Below are positions 19,284 through 38,476 of a stretch of 48,634 nucleotides of DNA, one piece after another. The stretch covers positions 1 through 48,634 of the IMG/VR virus record IMGVR_UViG_3300037193_000509, one strand, 5' to 3'. This DNA comes from a virus. The position numbers and the translations under genes are program-made. Numbering within the stretch: the stretch's first letter is position 1; every line of letters starts with the position of its first letter. A model generated the notes under the pieces. The model saw nothing but the letters and a program-made list of their open reading frames with translations. It did not search any database and had not been told where the DNA came from.

Positions 19284-19736
19284 ATGAAAAAACTAGTACT
19301 ATTTACCCTGCTATGCCTGCCGGCAGCCGTTAATGCCCAGGGATACCATCTACCACAGAAAGGAGTCAAGCGGGCCGTCTGTGAGTACGGAGCATCAGGA
19401 GATAGTTTATTTACCTTGGTTTCCCAGCAGCTATTGGGTGCTGGATATACGATAGACAAGAGGGATAAGGAGCTGCATTTGATCACCACAGAAGGGAAAG
19501 ATATAAGGCACGGTATTTATAAGCTTAGAGTGGTAGTGAATGAAAATAAGGTAGATATTTCGTCTAAATGGATGACGGCCGTTACCTTGTCTTTCGGAGG
19601 CGTTAAAACGGAACAAACCTGGTATGATGTGGAAATGGCGAATGCGAAGGGTAACATTCAAAATGCCATCTGGCGGGAAATGATGGCCTTCATTGAGAAA
19701 ACTAAACCTGTAACTGTAAATTACGCAAAACAATAA
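19284..19736 (+). CDS. Secreted hypothetical protein (lysogeny unit)
   Basis: The start at 19284 gives a textbook Sec signal: MKKLVLFTLLCLPAAVNAQ, with cleavage expected after NAQ or nearby. The mature part, about 130 aa, is beta-rich with VVVNENKVDISSKWMTAVTL and a C-terminal helix. This looks like the small secreted DUF4468-type host proteins of Bacteroidota, though I cannot confirm the family. Its stop overlaps the ATG of the methyltransferase gene (TAATG). It lies in the same transcript as the repressor, so it should be expressed by lysogens. Confidence 0.65.
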   Translation: MKKLVLFTLLCLPAAVNAQGYHLPQKGVKRAVCEYGASGDSLFTLVSQQLLGAGYTIDKRDKELHLITTEGKDIRHGIYKLRVVVNENKVDISSKWMTAVTLSFGGVKTEQTWYDVEMANAKGNIQNAIWREMMAFIEKTKPVTVNYAKQ

Positions 19737-20464
19737 TGAACGAACTGTTACTTAAAGCCTGTGAAACCCGATCATTTACCAACAGTAAGGGGCAGCTGAT
19801 AAAAATGGACTCTGAAACTCCTGCGGGACAGTGCGTCTTCCTGCAGCAGGTGATCAGAGAAAACAAGGTGAAAACGTCGATAGAAATAGGGATGGCTTAC
19901 GGGACTTCCACGCTGGCAATAGCGGAGGGGATAGATAAAAACGGAGGAACCTCTTGCGTAGTCATAGACCCATACGAGAATAGCTACTGGAAGGGCCACG
20001 GGCTGGAATTATTAAAAGTAGGTGGTTACGGCCATATGATAGACTTTTACGAGCAGCCGTCTTATTCGGTGCTCCCGAAGTTCCTGGAAGAGGGGCGAAA
20101 GTTTGATTTCGCTTACATAGACTCTACGAAGCTAATGGATTGGATAACAGTAGATTTCTTTTACCTAGATAAGCTAATGGACGCCGGAGGTATTATTGTA
20201 TTTGATGATGTATCTTATGTATCAATTAAGAAGCTCATTAGATATTTGGCCCAGCTACCGCATTATGAAGTTGCCGCCGTTTATCCGAAAAATAAGATAC
20301 TGCCGTCCGTCCGGAAGCTAATTCTTAAGAACTTTGTACCCGGTTTCCTGCTGAAAGAGGATTTAAGGGTAACAGATCACAAGCTTGGAATTAATGCCCA
20401 TTGCGTAGCGCTGAGGAAAATAGGCCATGATACACGGAATTATGACTGGCATGTACCATTTTAA
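19736..20464 (+). CDS. SAM-dependent methyltransferase (class I, Methyltransf_24 type)
   Basis: The 242-aa protein shows the class I fold: motif I SIEIGMAYGTSTLAIAEGI (about 47-65), motif II VIDPY, motif III FDFAYIDSTK (about 121-130) and GGIIVFDDVSYVSIKKL. The IDPY/ID...DD pattern fits O-methyltransferases of the CmcI/Methyltransf_24 group that act on sugars or small molecules. The C-terminus is basic. No DNA-target domain is seen, so genome protection is unlikely. It sits between the secreted protein and an HTH protein in the lysogeny unit. Confidence 0.75.
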   Translation: MNELLLKACETRSFTNSKGQLIKMDSETPAGQCVFLQQVIRENKVKTSIEIGMAYGTSTLAIAEGIDKNGGTSCVVIDPYENSYWKGHGLELLKVGGYGHMIDFYEQPSYSVLPKFLEEGRKFDFAYIDSTKLMDWITVDFFYLDKLMDAGGIIVFDDVSYVSIKKLIRYLAQLPHYEVAAVYPKNKILPSVRKLILKNFVPGFLLKEDLRVTDHKLGINAHCVALRKIGHDTRNYDWHVPF

Positions 20465-21593: not shown

Positions 21594-22125
21594 GAAGGAA
21601 AATGGGCAGGAGGCCCAAGGGAAGCACCCTGGAGGGAGGCCAACAGCCTTTAAGCCCGAGTATTGCCGACAAGCCGAAAAGCTTTGCCGTTTGGGTGCCA
21701 CCGATAAAGAGCTGGCTGATTTCTTCGGAGTAGTAGAACAAACAATCAATAACTGGAAGGATATTCCCGAGTTTTTGGAGTCCCTAAAAAAGGGGAAAGA
21801 CCTTTCTGACGCCAATGTAGCAGATCGCTTATACAAGCGAGCTATGGGATATAGCCATAGGGCGGTAAAGATATTCAACGATAATGGTGAACCTATGCGG
21901 GTTGACTACATCGAGCATTATCCCCCTGATACCACAGCAGCTATATTCTGGTTAAAAAACCGGCAGCCCAAGAAGTGGAGGGACAAGATAGAGCAGGGCT
22001 TTACCAATGGTGAAGGGGAGGACGTGAGCCCGATAACAATATTCCAATTACCGGACAATGGCAGAACAAAGGATAATTCGGCCGCAAGAGGGGTATCAAA
22101 TGAGAGCCCTCAGCAGTCCGGCTGA
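21580..22125 (+). CDS. terS: Terminase small subunit
   Basis: The start at 21580 (MAKGKKENG) is preferred over an upstream ATG at 21553. The protein has HPGGRPTAFKPEYCRQAEKL followed by LGATDKELADFFGVVEQTIN, an HTH typical of terminase small subunits, and then YKRAMGYSHRAVKIF and WLKNRQPKKWRDK. It recognises phage DNA and hands it to TerL. It overlaps terL by 68 bases, which couples their translation. The length (181 aa) is normal. Confidence 0.85.
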   Translation: MAKGKKENGQEAQGKHPGGRPTAFKPEYCRQAEKLCRLGATDKELADFFGVVEQTINNWKDIPEFLESLKKGKDLSDANVADRLYKRAMGYSHRAVKIFNDNGEPMRVDYIEHYPPDTTAAIFWLKNRQPKKWRDKIEQGFTNGEGEDVSPITIFQLPDNGRTKDNSAARGVSNESPQQSG

Positions 22126-23560
22126 TATTGTAATAGGCGGGGCGGCCGCCGGCGTAGGGAAGACGTTCTGTCTGCTTATGGACCCGCTCCGGGATATAGG
22201 TGTTAAAGGGTTCGGTGGCGTGATCTTCAGGCGTACGTCACCACAAATAAGAAACGAGGGGGGCTTATGGGATACATCCATGGGCCTTTATCCATATGTA
22301 GGGGCAAGCCCTAAAGAAAGTGTGTTAGAGTGGCATTTCCCAAAAGGGCCAAAGATTAAGTTCAGCCACCTGGAGCATGAGAAAAACATCTTCGACTGGC
22401 AGGGGGCGCAGGTGCCATTTATAGGGTTTGATGAGCTGACACACTTTACAAAAAAAATGTTCTTTTACTTATTGAGCCGTAACAGGTCCGTATGTGGTGT
22501 TAGACCTTATGTCCGCGCTACCTGCAACCCTGATCCAGAAAGCTGGGTATATGAGTTGATAAAGTGGTGGATTGATGAGGATACCGGCTACCCAATACCT
22601 GAGCGAGATGGTGTAATACGCTACTTCGTTGTAGACGGAGAATCATATATCTGGGGGGATACGGAAGATGAAGTAATAGAAAACGCCTGGCATCTGCTGG
22701 AAGAGCAGGTTAATCGGTCTGGCATTTCAGCGCGGGAGTTTGTAAAATCTATTGCTTTTGTCTCAGGATCTATATATGACAATAAGGAGCTGCTGAGTAA
22801 AGACCCTGGCTATTTGGGTAATCTGATGGCGCAGGACGAACAAACGAAGCTGCAGCTATTGGGCGGTAACTGGAAGGTAGTTCTTAACGAGAATGATATA
22901 TATGATTTCTATAAGTTCTCTGGCATGTTTAACAACCTCTATGAGGTTAACCGAGTTGGCAAATTCATTACGGGTGATATTGCCCTGGAAGGGAAAAACA
23001 AGCTGGGTGTAGGATATTGGGAGGGTTTTGAGCTGGCGGATTTGGCTGTAGTAGACAAGAGCAAAGGGGATAAGGTAATAGAGGTGATCGCAGATATGGC
23101 CAGGGCATACAAAGTGGAGAACTGTAATATAACATTCGACGCTGATGGGGTAGGCGGTTTCGTGGACGGCTTTATTAAGGGGGCAATCCCATTTCACGGA
23201 GGCGCGCCGGTTATCGAGGTAAAAGATCCGGTAACAGACAAGGTGATAAAGGAGAATTACTTCAACCTGAAGGCCCAATGCTACTATCGTAGCGGTAAAA
23301 GGGTAGGTCGGGGAGAAACGAAGGTGAGTGAGAAGGTTGCAAATATGATGTATGATGACAACATGACCGTCCGCCAGCGCTTCATGCACGAGCGGAAGGC
23401 CATCAAAAAGGATAAGGTTGATATGGATGGCAAACATCGTTTAATCAACAAAAAAGCCATGAAGGCCGCGCTTAACGGCGAATCCCCGGACTTGATGGAC
23501 ATGCTGATGATGAGAGAATTATTTGAATTGAAACCTAAACCGGTGTGGGAAATCTTCTAA
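22058..23560 (+). CDS. terL: Terminase large subunit
   Basis: The 500-aa ATPase/nuclease motor has Walker A GGAAAGVGKT at 27-36, FRRTSPQIRNEGGLWDTS, Walker B FIGFDELTHF at 121-130 (D125, E126), and RATCNPDPESWVYELIKWWI as coupling motif. The nuclease half has FITGDIALEGKNKLGVGYWE and FDADGVGGFVDGF, which hold the acidic metal ligands. It packages DNA into the prohead and cuts it. Neighbours TerS and portal confirm the role. Confidence 0.95.
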   Translation: MAEQRIIRPQEGYQMRALSSPADIVIGGAAAGVGKTFCLLMDPLRDIGVKGFGGVIFRRTSPQIRNEGGLWDTSMGLYPYVGASPKESVLEWHFPKGPKIKFSHLEHEKNIFDWQGAQVPFIGFDELTHFTKKMFFYLLSRNRSVCGVRPYVRATCNPDPESWVYELIKWWIDEDTGYPIPERDGVIRYFVVDGESYIWGDTEDEVIENAWHLLEEQVNRSGISAREFVKSIAFVSGSIYDNKELLSKDPGYLGNLMAQDEQTKLQLLGGNWKVVLNENDIYDFYKFSGMFNNLYEVNRVGKFITGDIALEGKNKLGVGYWEGFELADLAVVDKSKGDKVIEVIADMARAYKVENCNITFDADGVGGFVDGFIKGAIPFHGGAPVIEVKDPVTDKVIKENYFNLKAQCYYRSGKRVGRGETKVSEKVANMMYDDNMTVRQRFMHERKAIKKDKVDMDGKHRLINKKAMKAALNGESPDLMDMLMMRELFELKPKPVWEIF

Positions 23561-25023
23561 CGAAAGCGATTAACAGTCTTATAGGCCCATCTAACCGCCA
23601 AATAGCGGCCATGCAGGCGCAGATGCAGCAGTCAGCGCAGCTATATATCAATCAGTGGCTGGAACAGCGGGTAAACTGGTTTCCGCAAGCCCCGATATAT
23701 CCGCATATTGACCAATCCGAGGCGGTTACAGAGGGTTACGCAAGTAATGCGGATGTTTACTCGATCATCTCCCGCAAGTCGCAAATGGCGGCCTCTATTC
23801 CGTTTTACGTGTATAAGGTCAAAGGGGCTGAGGGAAAGAAAATGCTGCGGGAGTATAAAACCCTGATGGGTGGTGAGCGGCTAACGGAAAGAGCCCTACA
23901 GCGGGCGGCATTCCTGAAAGTAAAGGCCCTGGAAGAGGTAGCCGAAGACAACCCGCTCAATCAGCTGCTGCAGAACCCAAACCCGGAGGAATCGCAGGCT
24001 GAATTCCTTGAAAAGTGTTACGGGTTCCTGGATATTACCGGGAATGCCTATATCTACAAAGAACGCCTCTCAATGGGGGCTAATGAGGGGAAGGTAAAGT
24101 ACATCCAAACCCTTCCCTCTCAGTTTATGAAGATCGTTCCTGACGGTACCGCCCCCACGTTGGGCATCGCCGGTTACATTATGTTCCTATGGGGAGAATA
24201 CGGCATCAAGAAAGAGAATGTTATCCACCTAAAATACTTTAATCCGGACTACCAGCCGGACGGATCACACCTATATGGCATGCCGCCACTACAGGCAGGG
24301 GCTAAGACCCTAGCCCGGTCAAACAGCGCGGTAGACAGTTCGACAGCTCAGTTCCAGCACGGAGGCCCGGCGGGGTTTGTTTATAACGAATCTATAGCGC
24401 CAGACGAATCCAACGCCGGACAGGTAGGTAAAATGAAAAAACTGTGGAATAACGAGCTGGAAGGCGACCGGAACCGGGGCAAGGTCTTTTTTTCCGCTGG
24501 CAAGCTGGGGTACATACAAACCGGCCTTTCCCCGGTGGATCTCAAAATCCTGGAATCTGAAGTATATACCTTCCGCCAGCTGTGCCGGCTGTTCAAGATG
24601 CCCTCTGCGATCTTCAACGACAACGAACATTCTACCCTAGCTAATATGGAGCAATTCTACAAGGACGCCTATATTAACGGGGTGATGCCGATGGTCATTA
24701 AGATGAGGGATTCACTGAACAGCTTTTTACTTCCTGAGTTCGGCGAAAAGGGCGAATACTTCATAGATGCCGACTACTCCAATGTGGCTGTTCTTCAGCA
24801 GGACATGAAGGCTCTGGCTGAGATGTTAGAAACGGCCTGGTGGATTAACCCGGATGAGAAACGGGAAGCTATGAAGTACGGCGAGATGGGCACACCAGCC
24901 ATGCAGCAGATTTATATCAAATCCGGCTATCAGCTGATAGAAGATCTGAGTATGCCAGCGGAGGACATAAGTGGCGATGTGGAGGAATTAAATAAAGCGG
25001 GGTTGAATCCATATGGTAAATAA
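23545..25023 (+). CDS. Portal protein (HK97 family)
   Basis: The start is a GTG at 23545 (MGNLLTKAINSLIG), overlapping terL by 16 bases. The 492-aa protein shows portal-type features: YSIISRKSQMAASIPFYVYK, NPLNQLLQNPNPEESQAEFL, GNAYIYKER, HLKYFNPDYQPDG and FRQLCRLFKMPSAIFNDNEH, with a helical C-terminus. It forms the dodecameric DNA channel at the head vertex. The next gene, a glycosyltransferase, overlaps its end by 11 bases, a most unusual neighbour for a portal gene. Confidence 0.9.
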   Translation: MGNLLTKAINSLIGPSNRQIAAMQAQMQQSAQLYINQWLEQRVNWFPQAPIYPHIDQSEAVTEGYASNADVYSIISRKSQMAASIPFYVYKVKGAEGKKMLREYKTLMGGERLTERALQRAAFLKVKALEEVAEDNPLNQLLQNPNPEESQAEFLEKCYGFLDITGNAYIYKERLSMGANEGKVKYIQTLPSQFMKIVPDGTAPTLGIAGYIMFLWGEYGIKKENVIHLKYFNPDYQPDGSHLYGMPPLQAGAKTLARSNSAVDSSTAQFQHGGPAGFVYNESIAPDESNAGQVGKMKKLWNNELEGDRNRGKVFFSAGKLGYIQTGLSPVDLKILESEVYTFRQLCRLFKMPSAIFNDNEHSTLANMEQFYKDAYINGVMPMVIKMRDSLNSFLLPEFGEKGEYFIDADYSNVAVLQQDMKALAEMLETAWWINPDEKREAMKYGEMGTPAMQQIYIKSGYQLIEDLSMPAEDISGDVEELNKAGLNPYGK

Positions 25024-25981
25024 AATTGTCCCAATACTACGCCATGGCCCATCCTGTGACTATCACCGGGTGGTATTGCCGTTTAAGTACATAGGATACG
25101 ACACTCAGGCGAAGCCCATAGATTATCAAACGGCAGAGGTTATAGTCTTCAACCGCCTAGCACACGAACCACCCGAAAGGTTTTTCGCCAATCAGCGCAA
25201 GTTCGGGTTTAAGTACGTGGTAGACGTAGATGACTATTGGCACCTGTACCCGCATCACTATATATACGCCAACTGGCAGAAAGCCAGGTTTACAGAAAAG
25301 ATAGAGGCCTTTATCAAGGGGGCTAATATCGTAACCACCACCCATGCCGCACTTGCTATCAAGATAAGGCCACTGAACAAAAATGTTGTTATTATCCCGA
25401 ACGCGTTGCCGTTTGACCAGGACCAGTTTTCTGCGGCTCGCACTGAAGCTGGTCAGACAAGGTTTATTTATGCGGGCGGCAGTTCACATCTTCACGACTT
25501 CGAACAAGTAGCGCCGGCCATACGGGCAACAAAGGGTATAAAGTTTACCCTTGCGGGTATTGAGGCTAATGATCAATGGAATAAGATGCAGGCGCTTCTG
25601 CAGGGCTATAATTATGTTCGGCATTCATTCAAGCCCATTGGCGGCTACATGCAGGTGTATAATAACTCAGATGTGGCCCTGGGGCCGCTTCAGGGTAATG
25701 TATTCAATTCGTTAAAGAGCAATCTTAAGATGCTGGAAGCTGGGTGTAAGAACATGGCCTTTATCGCAAGCAAGGTCCACCCATATTTGAATGACCTGGA
25801 TAAGCGATATGTGATGTATGCGGAAACGGAGGCAGAATGGAGGGAGTTAATAGGCGAATGTATAAAAGACCCTGCATTAACCAGGGAGGCCGGATTACAG
25901 CTGGGAGAACACGTAAGAGAGCATTATGATTTGATCAAGGTAAACGAAATACGGCGCCAGGTTTATGAAAGTTTACTATAG
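25013..25981 (+). CDS. Glycosyltransferase (GT-B/GT4-like)
   Basis: The 322-aa protein starts IVPILRHGPSCDYHRVVLPF, then KYVVDVDDYWHLYPHHYIYA (an acceptor-side loop seen in GT4-like enzymes), TTTHAALAIKIRP, VVIIPNALPFDQDQF, FIYAGGSSHLHDFE, and a second domain with SDVALGPLQGNVFNSLKSNL and KMLEAGCKNMAFIASKVHPYL, which resembles the nucleotide-sugar end of GT-B folds. It transfers a sugar to an unknown acceptor. Overlap with portal (11 bases) and the next transferase (17 bases) shows co-expression with the head genes. Confidence 0.75.
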   Translation: MVNKIVPILRHGPSCDYHRVVLPFKYIGYDTQAKPIDYQTAEVIVFNRLAHEPPERFFANQRKFGFKYVVDVDDYWHLYPHHYIYANWQKARFTEKIEAFIKGANIVTTTHAALAIKIRPLNKNVVIIPNALPFDQDQFSAARTEAGQTRFIYAGGSSHLHDFEQVAPAIRATKGIKFTLAGIEANDQWNKMQALLQGYNYVRHSFKPIGGYMQVYNNSDVALGPLQGNVFNSLKSNLKMLEAGCKNMAFIASKVHPYLNDLDKRYVMYAETEAEWRELIGECIKDPALTREAGLQLGEHVREHYDLIKVNEIRRQVYESLL

Positions 25982-26498
25982 CAATCCGTATGCAAGGGAT
26001 AAGAATATAGGCAGAGCGTTAAATGAGTTTTGCGCTATGGTTCCAGGGGATTCCTGGATCGTTCTTCAGGATGGGGATATAATGTATCTGACAGACTTTT
26101 GGGGCGCTCAAATAGAAGATATCATATCAAAGAACGGGGATTATGACCTAATAGGATGCATGACCAACCGGTTAAGGAATACGCACCAGTTACATGAAGG
26201 AAGGGTATCTGAAGATACAGACATTATGAACCATATGAAGATAGCTGAACATCTGCATAAAGAACATTATGACGCTGTAGAGCAGACATTTAAACCTATC
26301 GCCGGAATGTTTATGCTCTTCCCAAAGAAGACATGGGCGAGTATCCGGTTCCGGGAGAATACGCCAGCTTTCGATACCTTTTTCAGTAAACAGTTGATCG
26401 CCAATGGCGGTAAAGTAGGCATAGCGAAGGGGTTGTATATCTTCCATAAGTACCGGCTTGGCAAACCAGATATTAAAAACGATAAACATTTAAGATGA
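25965..26498 (+). CDS. Glycosyltransferase, GT-A-like (short)
   Basis: The 177-aa protein has VPGDSWIVLQDGDIMYL (DGD at about residues 37-39, a DxD metal motif), DLIGCMTNRLRNTHQL, KPIAGMFMLFPKKTWASIRF and HKYRLGKPD. The latter two parts are usual for the acceptor half of a GT2-type enzyme, but the N-terminal nucleotide-binding strand is short. It may be a compact GT-A enzyme. It overlaps its neighbours by 17 and 4 bases. Confidence 0.65.
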   Translation: MKVYYSNPYARDKNIGRALNEFCAMVPGDSWIVLQDGDIMYLTDFWGAQIEDIISKNGDYDLIGCMTNRLRNTHQLHEGRVSEDTDIMNHMKIAEHLHKEHYDAVEQTFKPIAGMFMLFPKKTWASIRFRENTPAFDTFFSKQLIANGGKVGIAKGLYIFHKYRLGKPDIKNDKHLR

Positions 26499-27283
26499 GT
26501 TTAATAGCTATGGCGGTATTCGACACCAAGGAGAATAACCGTACCTGGATGACAGCAGAGACGCTTAAGTCGTTAGCGCTAAGGGTAGACTTCACTAAGC
26601 ACCGTTTGTTTGTTATTGATAATGGCTCCTGTGAAGAAACGAAGCAGTTATTATCATGTTACAGCGAAATCCGACCCGTAACGGTAATAACCAATGAGAC
26701 TAATATAGGCACCGCCAATGCCATCAATCGGGCCTGGGCGCAACGTATGCCCGGGGAACACCTGATCAAGATGGATAATGACGTGGTTATTCATCAAGAA
26801 GGATGGGTGGATCTGCTGGAAGAAGTTATAGCCCGCATGGAGAGCACCGAAACTCCCGCCGGTATAGTCGGACTAAAGCGCAAAGACTGTATAGAATCGC
26901 CAAACAGAGAAGCCGGGGACTTTTACCACAGTGAATTGGTTATGACCCCGGCGCCGCTCGGGCATAAATGGATTGTGGCAGAAAAGGTCAATCATGTGAT
27001 GGGTACCTGTCAAATGTACAACCACAAGCTGATAGATAAGATTGGCGGGCTATATCAAATGCAGGGGCTATACGGGTTTGATGATGCCCTAGCTGCTATA
27101 CGCTGCCAGATAGCCGGATTTCATAACTATTTCGTCCCTGAGGTGGTGATCGATCATATAGACCCGGGAGATACCGGTTATCAAAAGTGGAAAGAGGGCT
27201 ACGCTGGGGAGCGCATGAAAGAATACAACGACCTCAGGGAGCAATATTTAACCGGTAAGACATCAATCTATCACCCGCTATGA
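26495..27283 (+). CDS. Glycosyltransferase family 2
   Basis: Classical GT2: HRLFVIDNGSCEETKQLL, NETNIGTANAINRAW (about 67-81), IKMDNDVVIHQEGWVDLLEE (DND at 94-96, the DxD motif), GIVGLKRKDC, NHVMGTCQMYNHKLIDKIGG, and LYGFDDALAAIRCQIAG. It is full length (262 aa) for a soluble GT2. It needs a nucleotide-sugar and metal. ATGA overlaps on both sides place it in the cassette. Confidence 0.8.
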   Translation: MSLIAMAVFDTKENNRTWMTAETLKSLALRVDFTKHRLFVIDNGSCEETKQLLSCYSEIRPVTVITNETNIGTANAINRAWAQRMPGEHLIKMDNDVVIHQEGWVDLLEEVIARMESTETPAGIVGLKRKDCIESPNREAGDFYHSELVMTPAPLGHKWIVAEKVNHVMGTCQMYNHKLIDKIGGLYQMQGLYGFDDALAAIRCQIAGFHNYFVPEVVIDHIDPGDTGYQKWKEGYAGERMKEYNDLREQYLTGKTSIYHPL

Positions 27284-27933
27284 GAGTGAAATTGATAGCC
27301 ACGGCCACAGACCTAAGCCATCAGGGGTTGCAAATGCTAAAGAAATCCCTTGATCTGTTCGGCTGGGATTACGAAATATTAACCGGAAAGTATCTGGCGT
27401 ATGGGTCAAAGATGGTGAATGCATATAATTACGCAAAACAAACCGATTGCACTCACCTGTTTATAGTTGATGGATATGATATTGTTGTTCTGGGCACCAT
27501 GGGCGAGGCGCTACAGAAAGTAGGGCATCTTGATTGCATACTATTTAACAGCGAAAAAGGTTGCTGGCCCTATCCGGAATGGGCCGAAAGATACCCTGCG
27601 GTAAATTCAGATTGGAAATATCTTAACGGTGGGGCATGCTTCGTAAAAACAGATCTATTTGTTAGGATGTTTGAGGGGAATCCTATTGACCATAAGGATA
27701 ACGACCAGGTTAATTTGGCAGATATTTACCTGAATAATCGCGACAGGTATAATATGAGACTAGACACCGGATGCGAGGCGTTTCAATCAATAGCTTTTGA
27801 GCGCCCTGGGGATTTCAAATATGAGGGTAACAGGCTCATAAATAGTAAGCTCAATACATTGCCGGTAATTATTCACGGAAATGGCAAAACTGATATGAGC
27901 CGCATCTATGCACTTATAAACAATCAGGTATGA
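27280..27933 (+). CDS. PLOD/procollagen-type glycosyltransferase
   Basis: The 217-aa protein has THLFIVDGYDIVVLG (DGYD at 64-67), CILFNSEKGCWPYPEW (about 86-101) and LNGGACFVKTDLFVRMF, the markers of PLOD-like and LPS-type glycosyltransferase domains (FSAE..CWP..). The later HGNGKTD matches the metal/UDP-binding HGN motif. It would use a UDP-sugar. The ATGA overlaps fix its place as the fourth transferase after the portal. Confidence 0.75.
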   Translation: MRVKLIATATDLSHQGLQMLKKSLDLFGWDYEILTGKYLAYGSKMVNAYNYAKQTDCTHLFIVDGYDIVVLGTMGEALQKVGHLDCILFNSEKGCWPYPEWAERYPAVNSDWKYLNGGACFVKTDLFVRMFEGNPIDHKDNDQVNLADIYLNNRDRYNMRLDTGCEAFQSIAFERPGDFKYEGNRLINSKLNTLPVIIHGNGKTDMSRIYALINNQV

Positions 27934-28637
27934 CATTAAATGACATTCGGGACAATTGGCACGACAGCCAGCAGGCGCATCGGCTACTAAATCAGGTGTT
28001 CATTAGTGCCGTAAATGATATACCCACCCTGAAGGCACACCGCGATTTTGTAGAGAATAATATTTGGGGCTTCGGAGAAAGGTCTTTCCACTGGATGCAC
28101 AAGCTAATAGTGGATGAAATGCCACAATCGTTTTCTTTCCTGGAAATAGGGGTATTCAAAGGGCAAGTACTGTCCTTATACCAGCTATTGGCCGATATGG
28201 CAGGCAAAACAGTGTTCCGTTACGGCGTTACGCCCCTTTCAACCGCCGGGGGCGTATGGGAATCCGACTACAGGAAAGACATTGAAGTAATTCACGATCA
28301 GCTTGACCTGTCAAAGGGTTATACTATCCTGGAAGGGTTTAGTACCGATCCTGCTATTATATGCCAAGCGCAGCAGTTACAAATCGACGTGCTTTATATC
28401 GATGGCGGCCATGATTATAAGACCGTAATCAATGACTTCACGCATTACCTGTCTATTCTAAAGCGAGGTGGCATATTGGTAGTAGATGATTGTTGCAATA
28501 ATATGAATCTGCCAAATGGATACTTTGCCGGTCATAAGGAAGTGACAGATGCGACAAATTTTATCATGGCTGGTAACCAGGATTACGAGTTCTTATTTAA
28601 TGTGGTTCATAATAAGGTTTGGAGGAAATTAAACTAA
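27930..28637 (+). CDS. SAM-dependent methyltransferase of the sugar cassette
   Basis: Methyltransf_24-type: SFLEIGVFKGQVLSLYQLLA (motif I), IDVLYIDGGHDYKTVINDF (about 150-168) and GGILVVDDCCNN. The IDGGHDY signature is typical of enzymes that O-methylate sugars or other small acceptors. Being fifth in a run of overlapping glycosyltransferases, it probably methylates the transferred glycan. It resembles in layout the methyltransferase at 19.7 kb but is not a close copy. Confidence 0.75.
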   Translation: MTLNDIRDNWHDSQQAHRLLNQVFISAVNDIPTLKAHRDFVENNIWGFGERSFHWMHKLIVDEMPQSFSFLEIGVFKGQVLSLYQLLADMAGKTVFRYGVTPLSTAGGVWESDYRKDIEVIHDQLDLSKGYTILEGFSTDPAIICQAQQLQIDVLYIDGGHDYKTVINDFTHYLSILKRGGILVVDDCCNNMNLPNGYFAGHKEVTDATNFIMAGNQDYEFLFNVVHNKVWRKLN

Positions 28638-29993: not shown

Positions 29994-30539
29994 ATGAAGA
30001 AATCAGCAATTATCATTTCACTTCTGTTAGTCCCGCTCATTACCGGTATCGGGATGTTCATTTCTTACTCTAATTCAGAGGTCAAGCTACGGAACCGCTT
30101 CACTCAGAAGTACAGTGAGCGCACCGCCTTCTACGATAAGATGTGGAAGACCCTGAGCCAGAAAGGCCAGATAGCCTTAAAGAATGATTCATCCTTCCGG
30201 CAGAACATCGACATTATCATGCAGGGGCGTAAAGACGCTCCGGATCTGGTTATGAAGTGGATTACCGAAACCAACCCTAACGCCAATTATTCTGAAGTTT
30301 CAGCGCTGTACAAAGACCTGAGCCGGTCAGTTGAAGCAGAGCGGGAGGGATTCTTTAATCAGGAGAAAATGTTGCAGGATCTGAAGCTTGAACATGATAA
30401 CCTGCTGGATGTGTTCCCATCCTCTGTGGTCCTTTCCATGATGGGCAAGAATAAACATATCGAATACAAGCCTATAACATCTACCATAACAGACGCAGTA
30501 ATCACTGCTGGAAAGGATGACAATGTAAAAATATTTTGA
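29994..30539 (+). CDS. LemA-like membrane protein (181 aa)
   Basis: The start at 29994 gives one N-terminal span (IIISLLLVPLITGIGMFIS). It continues with SEVKLRNRFTQKYSERTAFY and a long helical body, then KPITSTITDAVITAGKDDNV, in the order of LemA proteins (Y...V.LRNRV...). LemA proteins expose a helical domain at the membrane; their role is poorly known. It precedes a large Cys-rich membrane protein, a pairing also seen in other large phages. Confidence 0.65.
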   Translation: MKKSAIIISLLLVPLITGIGMFISYSNSEVKLRNRFTQKYSERTAFYDKMWKTLSQKGQIALKNDSSFRQNIDIIMQGRKDAPDLVMKWITETNPNANYSEVSALYKDLSRSVEAEREGFFNQEKMLQDLKLEHDNLLDVFPSSVVLSMMGKNKHIEYKPITSTITDAVITAGKDDNVKIF

Positions 30540-30541
30540 CC

Positions 30542-31753
30542 ATGGGAGTGGAATGGTTCGCTTTGGTGGTGCCGGTTCTGTGCTGTGTGATTATGCTTTT
30601 GTTGTTCAGGAAGAAAATAGTGTGGTGGGAACTGGCACTCCCTACAGCGGTGACAGCTGTAGTAATATTGCTCTTCAAGTGGGCGGCATTCCGTTATAAC
30701 ATCTATGACGTAGAATACAGGGGAAGTGTCATTGTTTCGGTCCGGTATTACGAATATTGGGAAACATGGGTGAGTCAAATGTGTACCCGGCAGGTGGCAT
30801 GTGGGGAGAATTGTAGTACGGATGCCAACGGAAACCGAACCTGCACCACTGTATACTGTACTGAATATTATGATTGCTCCTACTGTGACCATAATCCCGC
30901 CGAATGGTATGCCTACGACAACTACGGGAACAAATATCCGATCAGTGAAGCATATTACAATGAGCTGAAAGCCCGTTGGAAGGCTACACCTGAGTTCATA
31001 GAATTAAACAGGAGTATATCGCATCACGGCGGGTGTGGTAAAGACGGGGACGCCTACTCAATCGCTTGGGACGGCAATCCTCATAGTGCCGATGCCGCAG
31101 TAAGGGAACATTCCTACAAGAACTACGTGCAGGGCTCGCATTCCGCCTTCAAAATGCCCTACGTTTCAGATAAGGAGGCGAAAAAGCTGGGGCTTTACAA
31201 ATACCCTGAGCTATACCGACCATATAAACAACCCGCTATCTTAGGTCTGGATAGCCTTAAAATGGCTCAATCAGCTAAGGATAGCATACTGGCCCTATAC
31301 GAGTATTTCAACGGCTACTACGGCTCAGAAAAGCACGTAAAGATGTTTATCCTGCTATTCCCGGATAAGCCTATAGGAATTTCCTTCCAACAGGAATACT
31401 ATTGGGACGGCGGTAACGATAATGAGCTGGTGGTTGTCATTGGCTACGACAGTCGGACTAACCGTCTTTCTTGGGTTCGCCCTTTTGGCTGGGCGGATGA
31501 AAAGCGGGTATTTATCGATGTTCGGGAAGATATTATGGAGATCGGCGTACTGGACTTTTATCGGTTCTATCAGCCATTGGGGCAAGATATTGAAAAGTAT
31601 TGGAAGCCTAAAAATTTCCGTGACTTCAATTACCTACATGTTGATTTAAGCACAACGCAGCTTATTTGGCTATATATCCTAACGACTCTCGTTTCGGTGG
31701 GCGTATCGATCTATTGCGTTAAAAATCAGTTTGAATATGATCAAAGATACTGA
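30542..31753 (+). CDS. Cys-rich multi-span membrane protein (403 aa)
   Basis: Two N-terminal spans (WFALVVPVLCCVIMLLLF and ALPTAVTAVVILLFKW), then a 300-residue soluble domain with a Cys cluster (MCTRQVACGENCSTDANG, TTVYCTEYYDCSYCDHN), and a C-terminal span (LIWLYILTTLVSVGVSIY). The Cys-rich part should face the periplasm, where disulfides form. HHGGCGKDGDAYSIAWDGN and YPELYRPYKQPAIL are distinctive. I know such proteins only as conserved phage membrane proteins beside LemA-like genes; the role is unknown. Confidence 0.6.
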   Translation: MGVEWFALVVPVLCCVIMLLLFRKKIVWWELALPTAVTAVVILLFKWAAFRYNIYDVEYRGSVIVSVRYYEYWETWVSQMCTRQVACGENCSTDANGNRTCTTVYCTEYYDCSYCDHNPAEWYAYDNYGNKYPISEAYYNELKARWKATPEFIELNRSISHHGGCGKDGDAYSIAWDGNPHSADAAVREHSYKNYVQGSHSAFKMPYVSDKEAKKLGLYKYPELYRPYKQPAILGLDSLKMAQSAKDSILALYEYFNGYYGSEKHVKMFILLFPDKPIGISFQQEYYWDGGNDNELVVVIGYDSRTNRLSWVRPFGWADEKRVFIDVREDIMEIGVLDFYRFYQPLGQDIEKYWKPKNFRDFNYLHVDLSTTQLIWLYILTTLVSVGVSIYCVKNQFEYDQRY

Positions 31754-32841: not shown

Positions 32842-33173
32842 GCATAACCGTTAGACGCGATCCGTTGGGCGATATGCCATCGTTTATTGATTCCTGGCAA
32901 GACCAGTGTGTCCAAAGGTATCAGGACCAAATAAATGAAGCTATCCGCAAGAAATGTGAGGATATTGGACATGATTATCGCCCTGAACGCATCATATTGA
33001 TTAACGACCAAATAGGTAACAACCTTTACTACTACCAAACCGACACAGGCTCACTGGAGCCATTATTTGCCCATGCGCAAATGAATATGAAATGGAACGA
33101 CGACGGCAATAAGCTGACTGTTACATTGGAGTCAATGGAACTGCATCCAGATATATTCAAACCGAAAATATGA
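32838..33173 (+). CDS. Hypothetical protein (111 aa)
   Basis: MSITVRRDPLGDMPSFIDSW, helical middle, beta-rich end (KLTVTLESMELHPDIF). It shares the first four residues with its neighbour but little else. No family recognised. ATGA overlap with the RNA ligase gene. Confidence 0.55.
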   Translation: MSITVRRDPLGDMPSFIDSWQDQCVQRYQDQINEAIRKKCEDIGHDYRPERIILINDQIGNNLYYYQTDTGSLEPLFAHAQMNMKWNDDGNKLTVTLESMELHPDIFKPKI

Positions 33174-33832
33174 AGAAAATACCAACTCTGTTCGTAAGGG
33201 ATTACGAAACGATAATAACCGGCTTTGAGCCTATAGCGGCGTCCACCAACGTGGATGGGAGTCAATCTATAGCTCATAAAGTAACCGAGAGTAAGAAAGG
33301 CCGCTTCCTGGCAACTAACCAGATAACACCCGGCTGCGAGTGGGTGATAAATGGTGAAGGAATAGCTACCCGGAAATGGGATGGTACTTGCTGTAAGGTC
33401 GAAAACGGCATCCTGTACAAGCGATATGATGCGAAACACGGGAAGACACCACCGGAAGGGTTTATTCCTGCTCAGGAGCCGGACCCCATTACAGGGCATT
33501 GGCCGGGGTGGTTGAAAATAAATCCTAACGATCCAGCGAACAGGTGGCACATTGAGGCTTTGGGTAACACTATTAAAATGGCCCACCCGAATGGGCTGCC
33601 GGATGGTTCCTACGAACTTGTTGGGCCAAAAATTAACGGTAATCGAGACAATATACCAACACATCAATGGATAAGGCACGGGAGCCAGATATACCCTGAT
33701 GCCCCAAGGGATTTTGAAGGATTGAAGCGCTGGTTTACGGCGTTTAATCTATCGTGTGAAGGTATTGTGTTCCACCACCCTGACGGCCGCATGTGCAAAA
33801 TCAAACGCTCAGACTTTGGGTTAAAATGGTAA
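33170..33832 (+). CDS. RNA ligase (DUF5565 / RNA ligase 1-like)
   Basis: The 220-aa protein has the nucleotidyltransferase motifs in order: ATRKWDGTCC with the adenylated Lys in KWDG (K69), GSYELVGPKINGN (about 146-158, motif III), CEGIVFHHPDG (196-206, motif IV) and CKIKRSDFGL (209-218, motif V). It uses ATP to join RNA ends. The phage also has several tRNAs, so tRNA repair after anticodon cleavage is likely. No polynucleotide kinase partner is seen in the window. Confidence 0.8.
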   Translation: MKKIPTLFVRDYETIITGFEPIAASTNVDGSQSIAHKVTESKKGRFLATNQITPGCEWVINGEGIATRKWDGTCCKVENGILYKRYDAKHGKTPPEGFIPAQEPDPITGHWPGWLKINPNDPANRWHIEALGNTIKMAHPNGLPDGSYELVGPKINGNRDNIPTHQWIRHGSQIYPDAPRDFEGLKRWFTAFNLSCEGIVFHHPDGRMCKIKRSDFGLKW

Positions 33833-34688: not shown

Positions 34689-34698
34689 CAATAAATAG

Positions 34699-34783
34699 CG
34701 GAAGGTAGAGGGCTCGAACCCCTGTCGGCTTTCGCCGCCGTCAGTTTTCAAGACTGCGCCATTACCAACTCTGGCAACCTTCC
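34699..34783 (-). tRNA. tRNA-Ser(TGA)
   Basis: Acceptor GGAAGGT/ACCTTCC, anticodon loop CTTGAAA (anticodon TGA, codon UCA), long variable arm (GGC-GAAA-GCC type) and T-loop TTCGAGC. G at the discriminator position is right for Ser. No CCA is encoded. It lies on the strand opposite to the genes around it. Confidence 0.9.
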
Positions 34784-34787
34784 ATAG

Positions 34788-34863
34788 AGAGCATGAGCAG
34801 AATCGAACTGCTGTATTCATAGTTTTGCAGACTATGCCCTATACCAACATTGGGTACATGCTC
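34788..34863 (-). tRNA. tRNA-Cys(GCA)
   Basis: Acceptor GAGCATG/CATGCTC, anticodon arm ATAGT-CTGCAAA-ACTAT (GCA, codon UGC) and T-arm CAGCA-GTTCGAT type. U at the discriminator position is characteristic of tRNA-Cys. No CCA encoded. Confidence 0.9.
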
Positions 34864-34868
34864 ATAAG

Positions 34869-34955
34869 CGGAGGGCAATGGAATCGAACCATCACCAGTG
34901 TTACCTGGAACATCTTAGCAGGATGCCGCAACAAACCAATATTTGCCTACCCTCC
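34869..34955 (-). tRNA. tRNA-Ser(GCT)
   Basis: Acceptor GGAGGGT/GCCCTCC (one G-U), anticodon arm GCATC-CTGCTAA-GATGT (GCT, codon AGC) and a long variable arm (CCAG-GTAACA-CTGG), as expected for Ser. G discriminator. No CCA encoded. Confidence 0.9.
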
Positions 34956-34961
34956 GAAGGG

Positions 34962-35047
34962 TGGGAGATATAGGATTCGAACCCATTACGTTTCTGATGT
35001 ACCGGATTTACAGTCCGGCACCACTCCATCATCGTAGCCGATCTCCC
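34962..35047 (-). tRNA. tRNA-Tyr(GTA)
   Basis: Acceptor GGGAGAT/ATCTCCC, anticodon arm CCGGA-CTGTAAA-TCCGG (GTA), a long variable arm as in bacterial tRNA-Tyr, T-loop TTCGAAT and A at the discriminator position. No CCA encoded. Confidence 0.92.
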
Positions 35048-35053
35048 AAATTG

Positions 35054-35127
35054 TACCCCTGGTCAGATTCGAACTGACAAACTTCAAGTCTTAAGCCTGA
35101 CGGCGTTCCCAGTTAGCCTACAGGGGC
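35054..35127 (-). tRNA. tRNA-Leu(TAA) with short variable loop
   Basis: Acceptor GCCCCTG/CAGGGGT (G1-U72), D-arm GGC..GCC, anticodon arm TCAGG-CTTAAGA-CTTGA (TAA, codon UUA), T-arm GTCAG-TTCGAAT-CTGAC, A discriminator. The variable region has only about 5 bases (AGTTT). Bacterial tRNA-Leu normally has a long variable arm, so either it is an unusual tRNA-Leu or its true acceptor differs. Confidence 0.8.
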
Positions 35128-35130
35128 TAG

Positions 35131-35206
35131 TACCTCCGGAGGGAGTCGAACCCTCAAAACTCCTGATCCTAAGTCAGGCGACTTTACCAAGTTTGCCCAC
35201 GGAGGT
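35131..35206 (-). tRNA. tRNA-Leu(TAG) with short variable loop
   Basis: Acceptor ACCTCCG/CGGAGGT, anticodon arm CCTGA-CTTAGGA-TCAGG (TAG, codon CUA), T-arm GAGGG-TTCGACT-CCCTC, A discriminator. D-arm GGC..GTC (one G-U) with a GG pair in the loop. The variable region is about 6 bases (AGTTTT), not the long arm of usual tRNA-Leu. First tRNA of the leftward cluster. Confidence 0.82.
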
Positions 35207-35323: not shown

Positions 35324-35365
35324 ATTGATTTTGCATGGCACAAAGATATATTCTTTTATGAAAGT

Positions 35366-35391
35366 ACCAAAATGTATATTTGATACCAAAA
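35366..35391 (+). promoter_or_regulatory. Late promoter P3 with tandem TACCAAAA elements
   Basis: TATATTTG at 35375-35382 is the -7 box. ACCAAAA occurs at 35366 and 35385, again 19 bp apart, as in P1. The gene starts at 35401, so the leader would be only about 10-15 bases. Confidence 0.6.
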
Positions 35392-35400
35392 CAGTAAGTA

Positions 35401-36354
35401 ATGACATCCAAAGAGCGCCGAGAATATTACGTTACCTGGTCCGCCTTCCAGATTAGGCAGGAAAAATCCTGGTTCCTCAAGATTTACCGCGCCCTCCAAT
35501 CAAATATGGATGCATTCGGCGATTATCTGCTCAAAAACGGCGTCCGGGATGCTTCGGCAATGATAGACTCCATCGTGAAGCCAGGGCCGATTATGGAGGC
35601 CTTACAGCGGCTTTACGTGCAGGTAGGAGTAAGAAGAGGGCGATTGGTTCGCCAGGAGATAAAGCGCGACACGCAGAAGCTACGGACGATGGGCGTGAAC
35701 GAGCAGCTAACCCAGGATATAGTGAAGTACTTCGAGCTGAACCTGCTCAATAAATCGGTAATCCCGATCACCAATACCCAGAAGCAGCACATATTACAGA
35801 TACTTTCCAAGGGAACGGAGGAAGGGTGGAGCGTGGAGCAGATGGCCCGTGAGATCACCGGTTCGCCATATACCCGCCGACACGCCCGGCTTGTAGTAAG
35901 AACAGAAACGGTCCGGGCCGCTAACGCTGGCGGCTACCTTGCGGCCCAACGTTCTGAATTTGTCCTGGATCATGAATGGATCAGCGCCCATGATGACAGG
36001 GTAAGACGGCCGCCGAAATCAAAGTTCGACCATTGGGATTTGGACGGCCAGGTTGTGCCAGGGGATAGGCCTTTCTTTTCCGGCGGGGAGGAACTTTGGT
36101 ATCCGGGAGACCCCAACGGGAGTGCGGGCAACGTGATTCAGTGCCGTTGTTGTGAAGCATATATCCCACGGAGGGACGCAACCGGACGATTAATCCGACG
36201 CCAGCCGAGGATTGCTACAGTTCAAAATCAGACTGCACCGGGGTTGCCGGTTGTTATCCCGGAAGCCCCGCAAGCCATTACGGTTCTGCAACCTGGGCCG
36301 AGTAATATAACAGAAATTATTACCGTGGGGCTCCGGGAATTGTTCTCCAATTAA
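35401..36354 (+). CDS. Head morphogenesis protein (SPP1 gp7 / Mu F-like)
   Basis: The 317-aa protein has a helical N-terminus and the Mu F domain: RLVVRTETVRAANAGGYLAA, HEWISAHDDRVRRPPKSKFD with HWDLDGQVVPGDRPF, and WYPGDPNGSAGNVIQCRCCE. It is a minor head protein that binds the portal and enters the prohead with or near the DNA. In related phages it follows the portal gene directly; here it lies 10 kb downstream. Confidence 0.9.
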   Translation: MTSKERREYYVTWSAFQIRQEKSWFLKIYRALQSNMDAFGDYLLKNGVRDASAMIDSIVKPGPIMEALQRLYVQVGVRRGRLVRQEIKRDTQKLRTMGVNEQLTQDIVKYFELNLLNKSVIPITNTQKQHILQILSKGTEEGWSVEQMAREITGSPYTRRHARLVVRTETVRAANAGGYLAAQRSEFVLDHEWISAHDDRVRRPPKSKFDHWDLDGQVVPGDRPFFSGGEELWYPGDPNGSAGNVIQCRCCEAYIPRRDATGRLIRRQPRIATVQNQTAPGLPVVIPEAPQAITVLQPGPSNITEIITVGLRELFSN

Positions 36355-36466: not shown

Positions 36467-37204
36467 ATGCAGGCGGCATTAGAGCGGAAGGTATTTGATC
36501 TCAAAACACTTGATGTAGACGCTAAGACAAAGAGCGTCAAAATTGCCATCGCTGAACTGGAAAGCGTTGACCGGGACAATGATATCTTCTCCGCAACTGC
36601 ATTTGATAAGACAATAAAAGAACGGGGGCCCCAGGGCACGAAAGAAATTTGGCACATGGCCGATCATGGATATTCCTTGACTTCTGCATTGAGCAAGTTT
36701 AAGGAATTGTACCGTGATGGCAAGTATGTCGTTGGTGTTTCCGAATACCGCGATACCGCGCTATGGCGGGACACCATATGGCCACTATATGAAGCCGGCG
36801 ACATAAACCAGCACTCTGTAGGGTTCCGTACAGTGAAATCAGGGCAATACTCTGAAACAGTAAGGGAGATTACCGAAGCGGCCCTGTGGGAGGGATCTGC
36901 AGTGCTGTGGGGGGCCAATCCATTCACACCGACATTAGGAGTTTCCAAATCCATGTTAAAACCGGAGCAGGTCGCGGCCGAAATCAAACGGTTCGACCTG
37001 CTTATTAAATCCATAAAACAAGGCCGTTTCGACGAGGATAACAGTCTGCTGCTGCTCGAATTAAAACGCCTTCAACAATTCACGATTGACCTTACTTCAA
37101 CCTCCACTGTGCCGGAAGAAAAGTCCACACAGCCGGATAGTGTAACGGACCTGATTGACATAGCGAAAGAGCTAAAGCACACTATCACAGGACTTTTCAA
37201 CTAA
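36467..37204 (+). CDS. Prohead serine protease (HK97 / U35 family)
   Basis: 245 aa: KSVKIAIAELESVDRDNDIF, TKEIWHMADHGYSLTSAL (H63 or H67 as catalytic His), WPLYEAGDINQHSVGFRTVK (S117 in QHSVGF as catalytic Ser) and EGSAVLWGANPFTPTLG match the U35 prohead protease. It cuts the capsid N-terminal scaffold during head maturation. It is followed by the capsid gene after 6 bases. Confidence 0.88.
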   Translation: MQAALERKVFDLKTLDVDAKTKSVKIAIAELESVDRDNDIFSATAFDKTIKERGPQGTKEIWHMADHGYSLTSALSKFKELYRDGKYVVGVSEYRDTALWRDTIWPLYEAGDINQHSVGFRTVKSGQYSETVREITEAALWEGSAVLWGANPFTPTLGVSKSMLKPEQVAAEIKRFDLLIKSIKQGRFDEDNSLLLLELKRLQQFTIDLTSTSTVPEEKSTQPDSVTDLIDIAKELKHTITGLFN

Positions 37205-37210
37205 CACACA

Positions 37211-38476
37211 ATGGAAGTTAAAGATATTAAAGGCGCGGTGGAGGAAGTTCTTGCCCCCGTAGCCGAACAGGTCAAGGAAGTAAAGGCCGCTGCCACTGCA
37301 GCAAAAACGGCCGCCGAATCTGCTGACACCGAAGCTAAAAAGGCAACCGAAAAGGCAACCACCATCGAAACAGAGGTTAAAGGCCTCAACGAGTGGAAGG
37401 CAACCAAAGACGAAGCCGACAAAAAAAATCAAGAAGCCCTGGATAAACTCATCCTGGACAGCCAGAAGCATCGTGTCATTGTTGGTACTGAACAGAAATC
37501 TTTTAAGTCCCTGCTGGCTGAATCCATTCAGGAAAACGCCTCAGCGATTGAAAACTTCGCTTCAAAAAAGCAAAAGGAAGTAGCCTTTCAGATGAAGGCA
37601 GTCGGCGACATGACGCTGAATAGCGCTACTACTTTCCCGACAGCGGACGTTTCTATCACGCAGCTTCGCCCTGGCATTATCGAGATGCCGAAAAGAAAAC
37701 TGCATATCCGTCAGCTGCTCTCTATGGGAAGCATGGATACCAGTCACTACGCATTCGTGAAAGAAATTGCCGGCGAAGGCGCACCCGCTCCTACAGCGGA
37801 AGCTGCACAAAAGCCGCAATTCGACATTCGCCTGCAGGAAGTAAGCGTACCCGCTGAAACCATTGCCGGTTACCTGAAGATCTCCCGCAAGATGTTGCGC
37901 GATGTGAAGGGTCTAACCACCCTGTTACAATCCCGCCTGCCGGAAAAACTGCTGACCGTAGAGGACAACCAACTGCTGAACGGCGACGGCAACGCGCCGA
38001 ACATTTCCGGTATTACTGATGCTGGCAACTTTACAGCTTATTCTGGCGATGCAACCGTATGGATCGAACAACTGGTAGAGGCAATTACCCAGCTGGAAGA
38101 GCAGAACCGCGACGTAAACGGCATCCTGGTCCGCCCTGCGGACTACGCAACACTGTTGCTGAACAAAGCAGCAGGTGGTGCCGGTACCTATGACCTGCCG
38201 CGCGAGTTGGTGACTTATACTAACGGACAGCTGTTTGTTAACGGAGTACCGGTGTTCAAGTCTACCGCAGCAAACGCTGGCCAGTTCATCGTAGGCGACT
38301 GGGTAATGGGTGCTAACCTGATAGTGAACGAGCCCCCGATCATCCAGTTCTTCGAACAGGACGAGGATAACGTTCAGAAGAACATGGTTACCGTTCGTAT
38401 CGAGGAAACCATTGCGTTCCCGATCTACGGTAACGACTACTTTGTGGTAGGCGATTTCCATGTTCCGACAACTTGA
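37211..38476 (+). CDS. Major capsid protein (HK97 fold, with scaffold domain)
   Basis: The 421-aa protein has an N-terminal coiled coil rich in Ala/Glu/Lys (about 1-95), which is the delta/scaffold domain removed by the protease, followed by the HK97-type shell domain: LHIRQLLSMGSMDTSHYAFV, EVSVPAETIAGYLKISRKML, LPEKLLTVEDNQLLNGDGNA and ETIAFPIYGNDYFVVGDF. It builds the icosahedral head. Codon use here is smoother than in the accessory island. A GC-rich hairpin follows the stop. Confidence 0.93.
   Translation: MEVKDIKGAVEEVLAPVAEQVKEVKAAATAAKTAAESADTEAKKATEKATTIETEVKGLNEWKATKDEADKKNQEALDKLILDSQKHRVIVGTEQKSFKSLLAESIQENASAIENFASKKQKEVAFQMKAVGDMTLNSATTFPTADVSITQLRPGIIEMPKRKLHIRQLLSMGSMDTSHYAFVKEIAGEGAPAPTAEAAQKPQFDIRLQEVSVPAETIAGYLKISRKMLRDVKGLTTLLQSRLPEKLLTVEDNQLLNGDGNAPNISGITDAGNFTAYSGDATVWIEQLVEAITQLEEQNRDVNGILVRPADYATLLLNKAAGGAGTYDLPRELVTYTNGQLFVNGVPVFKSTAANAGQFIVGDWVMGANLIVNEPPIIQFFEQDEDNVQKNMVTVRIEETIAFPIYGNDYFVVGDFHVPTT

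What the first reader, a model, noticed from the sequence alone, without database searches (positions are those of the whole stretch)
25013..28637. Four glycosyltransferases and a methyltransferase coupled to the portal gene
Seen: GT4-like, GT-A-like, GT2 and PLOD-like genes, then a Methyltransf_24-type gene, overlap each other (17 or 4 bases) and the first overlaps portal by 11 bases. Established: such enzymes build or methylate glycans. Inference: they are expressed with head proteins, so they may decorate capsid or tail with a methylated sugar, or build a surface glycan that masks the virion. DNA modification is a less likely alternative.
Basis: partly seen in the sequence, partly recalled or inferred. 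Interest (0 to 1): 0.82.

Follow-up and report, generated by a model that had tools for sequence, protein, structure and literature searches.

The report
Sugar-coat gene cassette in phage head operon
This bacteriophage, probably one that infects Chitinophaga-like bacteria, carries five linked enzymes (four that add sugars and one that probably methylates them) inside its head-building genes, and distant relatives carry interchangeable versions in the same part of the genome, which suggests that these viruses decorate their own particles with swappable sugar coats.

Summary
Downstream of the portal gene lie four intact glycosyltransferase (GT) genes and a Methyltransf_24 gene, with the stated overlaps. 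The interpretation, virion glycosylation, is the best-supported one but unproven.

New evidence here:
(1) The second gene (phrog_14179; predicted GT-A fold, pLDDT 92) lies beside or between head/structural genes in 83 of 85 related loci. They form about seven lineages and use several slots: portal|MuF, MuF|protease, MCP|head-tail adaptor, and upstream of a Clp-type head protease.
(2) A search seeded with a capsid protein found the cassette in 46 of 46 contigs that span the slot and no empty site. It is therefore a fixed part of the head operon of that freshwater lineage, not a sporadic cargo gene.
(3) There the GT is constant while its partners occur as two main interchangeable sets, swapped at least three times on the capsid tree. 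The window's own lineage also reshuffles partners around the same GT.
(4) The rivals lack their usual parts: no thymidylate-synthase/hydroxymethylase family in 26 records, no GtrA flippase, no membrane segment in any of the enzymes.

Virion glycosylation by phage GTs is known (mycobacteriophages), as is capsid-sugar methylation (chlorovirus PBCV-1). This is a new variant: modular, methyltransferase-containing glycan cassettes in head operons. The acceptor protein is unknown.

The parts
23545..25023 (+). portal protein (upstream anchor of the cassette)
   Evidence: PF04860 2.7e-49; 60-90% identical in relatives
25013..25981 (+). GT1: GT-B-like glycosyltransferase, 322 aa
   Evidence: PF13524 1.4e-7, phrog_7162 1.1e-78; 70% in L003, 41-43% to Stephanstirmvirinae GTs
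25965..26498 (+). GT2: small GT-A glycosyltransferase with DGD motif, 177 aa; the constant member of the cassettes
   Evidence: phrog_14179 6.2e-52; invariant D36, D38, N68, R69, H161 and others in 26 sequences; AlphaFold pLDDT 92, Foldseek GT-A enzymes; at least 80 viral loci
26495..27283 (+). GT3: GT2-family glycosyltransferase (DND motif), 262 aa
   Evidence: PF00535 1.5e-10; 73% in L003
27280..27933 (+). GT4: PLOD/LH3-type glycosyltransferase, 217 aa; DxxD and HGNG motifs kept
   Evidence: PF25342 1.7e-28; PDB mimivirus R699 (9dyt) 3.6e-17 and LH3 GT domain 1e-16; only 36% to its L003 counterpart
27930..28637 (+). MT: Methyltransf_24 SAM-dependent methyltransferase, 235 aa, likely sugar O-methyltransferase
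   Evidence: PF13578 4.6e-12, RMNT_CmcI 4e-4, below its curated cut-off; low-confidence model best matches MeT1 (6g80) 2.9e-9; same family as the Cellulophaga head-module MT, HHalign 93%
19736..20464 (+). second O-methyltransferase (caffeoyl-CoA-OMT type) upstream of the terminase genes; possible accessory
   Evidence: PF13578 4.6e-16, PF01596 4.9e-13; PDB O-methyltransferases 6e-10
35401..36354 (+). MuF-like minor head protein (downstream head anchor)
   Evidence: PF04233 5.3e-9, phrog_2468 3e-37
36467..37204 (+). head maturation protease
   Evidence: phrog_80 3e-16
37211..38476 (+). major capsid protein (candidate glycan acceptor)
   Evidence: phrog_10 3e-38

Best explanation
The genes 25013-28637 are a late-expressed virion-glycosylation cassette. 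Soluble GTs use host nucleotide sugars to build a short glycan, sugar by sugar, on a head (or head-tail) protein in the cytoplasm during assembly, and the methyltransferase caps a sugar hydroxyl. The small GT-A enzyme (25965-26498) is the constant enzyme and probably makes the conserved linkage; the partners vary and set the final glycan type. Shown here: gene content, intact motifs, GT-A fold prediction, linkage to head genes in many lineages, fixation and purifying selection of the homologous cassette in one lineage, partner swapping. Inferred: late co-expression, protein acceptor, order of action, sugar methylation, and benefit (masking or altered surface binding).
For: 83 of 85 loci with a GT2-gene relative have a head gene on at least one side, in about seven lineages and several slots. 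Capsid-seeded scan: 46 of 46 spanning contigs carry a cassette, 0 empty. Two alternative partner sets, at least 3 swaps on the MCP tree, with flanks up to 94% (MCP) or 99% (Ad1) nt identical. dN/dS of the constant GT 0.084, as low as MCP 0.082. A methyltransferase accompanies the GT in most lineages. No thymidylate-synthase family in 26 records, no GtrA, no TM segment. Precedents: mycobacteriophage capsid and tail-tube glycans (Freeman 2023, as cited in PMC12619734); PBCV-1 A064R with two GTs and a sugar methyltransferase for its capsid glycan (PMC7826918).
Against: No glycan, acceptor or activity shown anywhere. In Stephanstirmvirinae relatives (L015) the homologous GTs sit near DNA polymerase genes, not head genes. 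In L008 the GTs are antisense to the head genes. In the window the portal-MuF interval also holds unrelated cargo (RNA ligase, tRNAs), so it is a tolerant insertion site. Linkage alone cannot exclude a late-acting host target.
Confidence: 0.62

Rival explanations
1. The enzymes modify host surface or exported glycans late in infection (superinfection exclusion or release from receptors), or serve lysogenic conversion.
For: The closest relative in a named genome is a Chitinophaga prophage; the authors of the phi18:1 study proposed LPS modification for its GT (PMC11946311).
Against: No GtrA flippase in 17 records although 7 of 14 control genomes rang; no membrane segment in any enzyme; head-operon position argues against expression in a lysogen (inference).
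Confidence: 0.2
2. DNA hypermodification: the GTs glycosylate modified bases to resist restriction.
For: Precedent of T4-type GTs and of newer DNA-glycosylating phage GTs (Pyle 2024, as cited in PMC12619734); the Cellulophaga MT is annotated as DNA methylase; Stephanstirmvirinae GTs lie beside DNA polymerase.
Against: No PF00303 hydroxymethylase family in 26 records including the complete Cellulophaga genome, control rang in 9 of 14; Tet/JBP also absent but its control was silent; no sequence match of GT1 to the T4 GTs in PDB; the MT family resembles small-molecule/sugar O-MTs.
Confidence: 0.08
3. A cargo (moron) cassette in a tolerant site, unrelated to the virion; position reflects only where insertions survive.
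For: The window's portal-MuF interval carries other cargo such as RNA ligase and tRNAs; partner genes differ between relatives.
Against: No empty site in 46 of 46 contigs of one lineage; low dN/dS; the same GT recurs in several different slots of the head module.
Confidence: 0.1

Closest known systems
Mycobacteriophage virion glycosylation (Freeman et al. 2023, Cell Host Microbe)
   Same: Phage-encoded GTs; glycans reported at the C-termini of capsid and tail-tube subunits (as cited in PMC12619734).
   Different: Here several GTs plus methyltransferase(s) form one swappable cassette inside the head module of Chitinophaga- and Cellulophaga-type phages; no glycan shown. Sequence relation to the mycobacteriophage GTs was not tested.
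Chlorovirus PBCV-1 capsid glycan machinery (A064R, A111/114R)
   Same: Virus-encoded GTs plus a sugar O-methyltransferase that build a methylated glycan for a major capsid protein (PMC7826918).
   Different: Eukaryotic virus, N-linked multidomain enzymes, not located in a head operon; no homology tested gene by gene.
Cellulophaga phage phi12:1/phi18:1 (Helsingorvirus) MT-GT pair
   Same: Homologous GT (46-48%) and MT (HHalign 93%) between MuF and head protease; the paper reports the GT in all phages of the genus (PMC11946311).
   Different: Two genes instead of five; authors proposed LPS or DNA modification, not virion.
LH3/PLOD and mimivirus R699 GT domains
   Same: GT4 is a PLOD-family GT with DxxD and HGNG motifs.
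   Different: No fused or separate 2OG oxygenase matching PF13640 and no collagen repeats in the window, so hydroxylysine is an unlikely acceptor.
T4 alpha/beta-glucosyltransferase DNA modification
   Same: Phage-encoded GTs.
   Different: No hydroxymethylase family, no detectable sequence similarity of GT1 to solved T4 GTs.

Membership tests
Phage virion glycosylation system | phage-encoded glycosyltransferases with intact motifs | tested here: met
Phage virion glycosylation system | conserved association with virion structural genes | tested here: met
   83 of 85 loci flanked by head genes; 46 of 46 spanning contigs with cassette
Phage virion glycosylation system | glycan present on a virion protein and lost on GT deletion | not testable with these tools
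   needs mass spectrometry and a mutant
Capsid glycan with methylated sugars (PBCV-1-like) | sugar O-methyltransferase encoded with the GTs | tested here: inconclusive
   Methyltransf_24 present; nearest fold MeT1, from a model of pLDDT 60
T4-type DNA glucosylation | nucleotide hydroxymethylase (thymidylate synthase family) | tested here: not met
   0 of 26 records, control rang in 9 of 14 genomes; the window itself may be a fragment
T4-type DNA glucosylation | Tet/JBP-type base hydroxylase as an alternative | tested here: inconclusive
   0 of 17 records but the control was silent
Gtr-type O-antigen conversion | GtrA flippase and membrane-bound GtrB/Gtr | tested here: not met
   0 of 17 records for PF04138; maximum KD19 of 1.36 or less in all enzymes
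Collagen-type hydroxylysine glycosylation (PLOD) | PLOD GT domain | tested here: met
   PF25342 1.7e-28
Collagen-type hydroxylysine glycosylation (PLOD) | lysyl hydroxylase and collagen-like acceptor | tested here: not met
   no PF13640 match; no GXY run of 5 or more in the window

The most novel reading that the evidence does not exclude
Many tailed phages, including Bacteroidota phages, carry an obligatory capsid-glycotype locus: one constant GT with swappable sets of partner GTs and methyltransferases inside the head operon. It generates alternative, often methylated, sugar coats on otherwise near-identical capsids, analogous to O-antigen serotype loci but on the virus particle.
Probability: 0.38. 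Interest if true: 0.83.

Novelty: new variant of a known kind. Interest (0 to 1): 0.64.

Why it matters
If true, virion glycosylation is not a mycobacteriophage curiosity but a built-in, changeable trait of phages from several environments. It would offer a genetic handle, deleting one cassette behind a constant capsid, to test what sugar coats do for a phage. It would also correct the LPS or DNA-modification reading of the homologous gene in cultured Cellulophaga phages.

Tried and rejected
DNA search of the cassette against phages found nothing. A single-sequence scan of 84,980 prokaryote genomes with the GT2 gene found no relative; a portal scan found one, a Chitinophaga eiseniae prophage. 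PDB sequence searches with GT1, GT3 and the MT gave no trustworthy hit. The hydroxylysine/collagen idea for GT4 was rejected. The Bacteroidota -33/-7 promoter scan was not above chance (3 matches, 1.2 expected) and had none near the cassette. The MT structure prediction was of low confidence. Profile comparison could not identify the 213-aa partner x15. A dN/dS run stopped before its last gene, GT231. The Freeman 2023 and Holmfeldt 2013 papers are not held.

Full report
What is there. Between the portal gene (23545-25023) and the MuF minor head gene (35401) lie, immediately after portal and on the same strand, five intact overlapping genes: a GT-B-like GT (PF13524/phrog_7162), a small GT (phrog_14179), a GT2-family GT (PF00535), a PLOD-type GT (PF25342) and a Methyltransf_24 methyltransferase (PF13578). 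Overlaps are 11, 17, 4, 4 and 4 bases. The rest of the window is a tailed-phage genome with terminase, portal, MuF, protease, HK97-type capsid protein, connectors and tail genes. The best relative in a named genome is a prophage of Chitinophaga eiseniae (portal 60%), so the host is probably Chitinophaga-like (inference).

Are the enzymes likely active? The phrog_14179 protein has no Pfam hit, but an AlphaFold model from 26 sequences (pLDDT 92, pTM 0.89) matches GT-A enzymes (LARGE1, RmlT, ppGalNAc-T2, TarP, LH3). Its DGD motif aspartates and about 15 other residues are invariant across the 26 sequences. The PLOD-type gene keeps the DxxD and HGNG motifs seen in its alignments to LH3 and mimivirus R699. 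None of the enzymes has a membrane-like segment.

Conservation. The whole set recurs in one other phage population (L002/L003): GT1-GT3 70-73%, MT 64%, but the PLOD gene only 35-36% and an extra methyltransferase inserted next to it, so the cassette is reshuffled internally. The other close relatives keep the phrog_14179 gene but with different partners: methyltransferase plus a 483-aa GT in the Chitinophaga eiseniae prophage (L018/L026), a 494-aa GT-cluster protein in L025. L024/L101 begins at this gene, so its upstream partners are unknown.

Wider family. A profile of the phrog_14179 protein found 196 relatives in IMG/VR, of which 80 loci were kept. Clustering of all ORFs shows a head gene on at least one side in 83 of 85 loci, counting the Clp-type head protease of L027/L029/L030/L031. 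Slots differ: portal|MuF (window lineage), MuF|protease (Cellulophaga phi12:1, phi18:1 and others), MCP|head-tail adaptor (a freshwater lineage and L007), upstream of the Clp-type head protease. By single linkage at 50% identity these are about seven lineages. The two exceptions are Stephanstirmvirinae-type (L015, L046), where two such genes precede GT1 homologues; in L015 they lie near DNA polymerase. In L008 the GT genes are antisense to the head genes, so co-transcription is not universal. The lineage count is a rough guide, not a formal test: 55 of the loci belong to one lineage, and many contigs are fragments.

Unbiased test. To avoid selecting for the GT, the freshwater capsid protein was used as bait. 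Of 80 loci, 46 contain both capsid and head-tail adaptor genes, and all 46 have a cassette between them; none is empty. The cassette comes as MT-x15-GT (26), MT-GT-GT-GT (19, in 6 of which the MT was not recognised) or another version (1). The phrog_14179 gene is in all 46. Flanks of different versions can be 94% (capsid) or 99% (adaptor) identical at DNA level. On the capsid tree the version is mostly inherited but changed at least three times on strongly supported branches (4 changes at minimum). dN/dS is 0.08 for the constant GT and 0.08 for the capsid, about 0.1-0.2 for partners. A sporadic cargo gene would leave empty sites and looser constraint; this looks like a required head-operon function with a variable part. 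The test was made in the freshwater lineage, not in the window's own, where only a handful of relatives exist.

Mechanism. The best reading is virion glycosylation: a constant GT probably makes the conserved linkage, variable GTs extend, and a methyltransferase caps. The methyltransferase family recurs in the Cellulophaga head module (HHalign 93%), where it is annotated as a DNA methylase, but its low-confidence fold is nearest to MeT1 of Mycobacterium hassiacum, which from my own knowledge is a mannoside O-methyltransferase. Order of action, acceptor and sugar identity are inference.

Rivals. DNA glycosylation of the T4 type needs a hydroxymethylase; none of 26 records has the family, including complete Cellulophaga genomes, while 9 of 14 control genomes rang. 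Tet/JBP was also absent but its control was silent. Host-surface conversion of the Gtr type lacks its flippase and membrane anchors. A host-directed soluble GT remains possible.

Comparison with the known. Phage-encoded virion glycosylation is published for mycobacteriophages (cited in PMC12619734) and virus-encoded capsid glycans with a sugar methyltransferase for PBCV-1 (PMC7826918). The phi18:1 paper notes its GT in all phages of the genus and suggests LPS or DNA modification (PMC11946311); the present data favour the virion. In the public record of phi18:1, portal, MuF, capsid and connector proteins are marked as found in virions, the GT and MT are not, as expected for enzymes that act during assembly. 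No paper found here describes head-operon glycan cassettes with swappable partners, but the search was limited to open-licence papers.

Verdict. Observation confirmed, interpretation partly supported and strengthened, claim of portal coupling narrowed to head-module linkage. New variant of a known kind, worth a direct mass-spectrometry test in cultured Cellulophaga phages.

Noticed in passing
22058-23560: The large terminase matches relatives only over residues about 230-500 at 31-33%, even in L009 whose portal is 90% identical, so the terminase was probably exchanged right next to the portal gene.
   Followed up: partly
34698-35206: Six tRNA genes (Ser, Cys, Ser, Tyr, Leu, Leu) lie antisense inside the head module, with a -33/-7-like promoter match just upstream (35341-35371, minus strand).
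   Followed up: no
33170-33832: RNA ligase (phrog_14301) in the same interval as the tRNA cluster; possibly tRNA repair.
   Followed up: no
3316-5856: 846-aa fusion of a DNA helicase-like protein and an N6/N4 DNA methylase domain.
   Followed up: no
19736-20464: Caffeoyl-CoA-type O-methyltransferase upstream of the terminase genes; not detected in the relatives then in hand, so it may be a further decoration gene or unrelated cargo.
   Followed up: partly
30536-31753: 405-aa Cys-rich protein with apparent membrane segments (phrog_2087, unknown function) in the cargo interval between cassette and MuF.
   Followed up: no
L015:8702-11846: E. coli Stephanstirmvirinae phages (nepoznato, phAPEC8 group) carry homologues of both GT2 and GT1 in a four-GT cluster; the searched genome has no thymidylate-synthase-family gene, so T4-type DNA glucosylation is unlikely there too.
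   Followed up: partly
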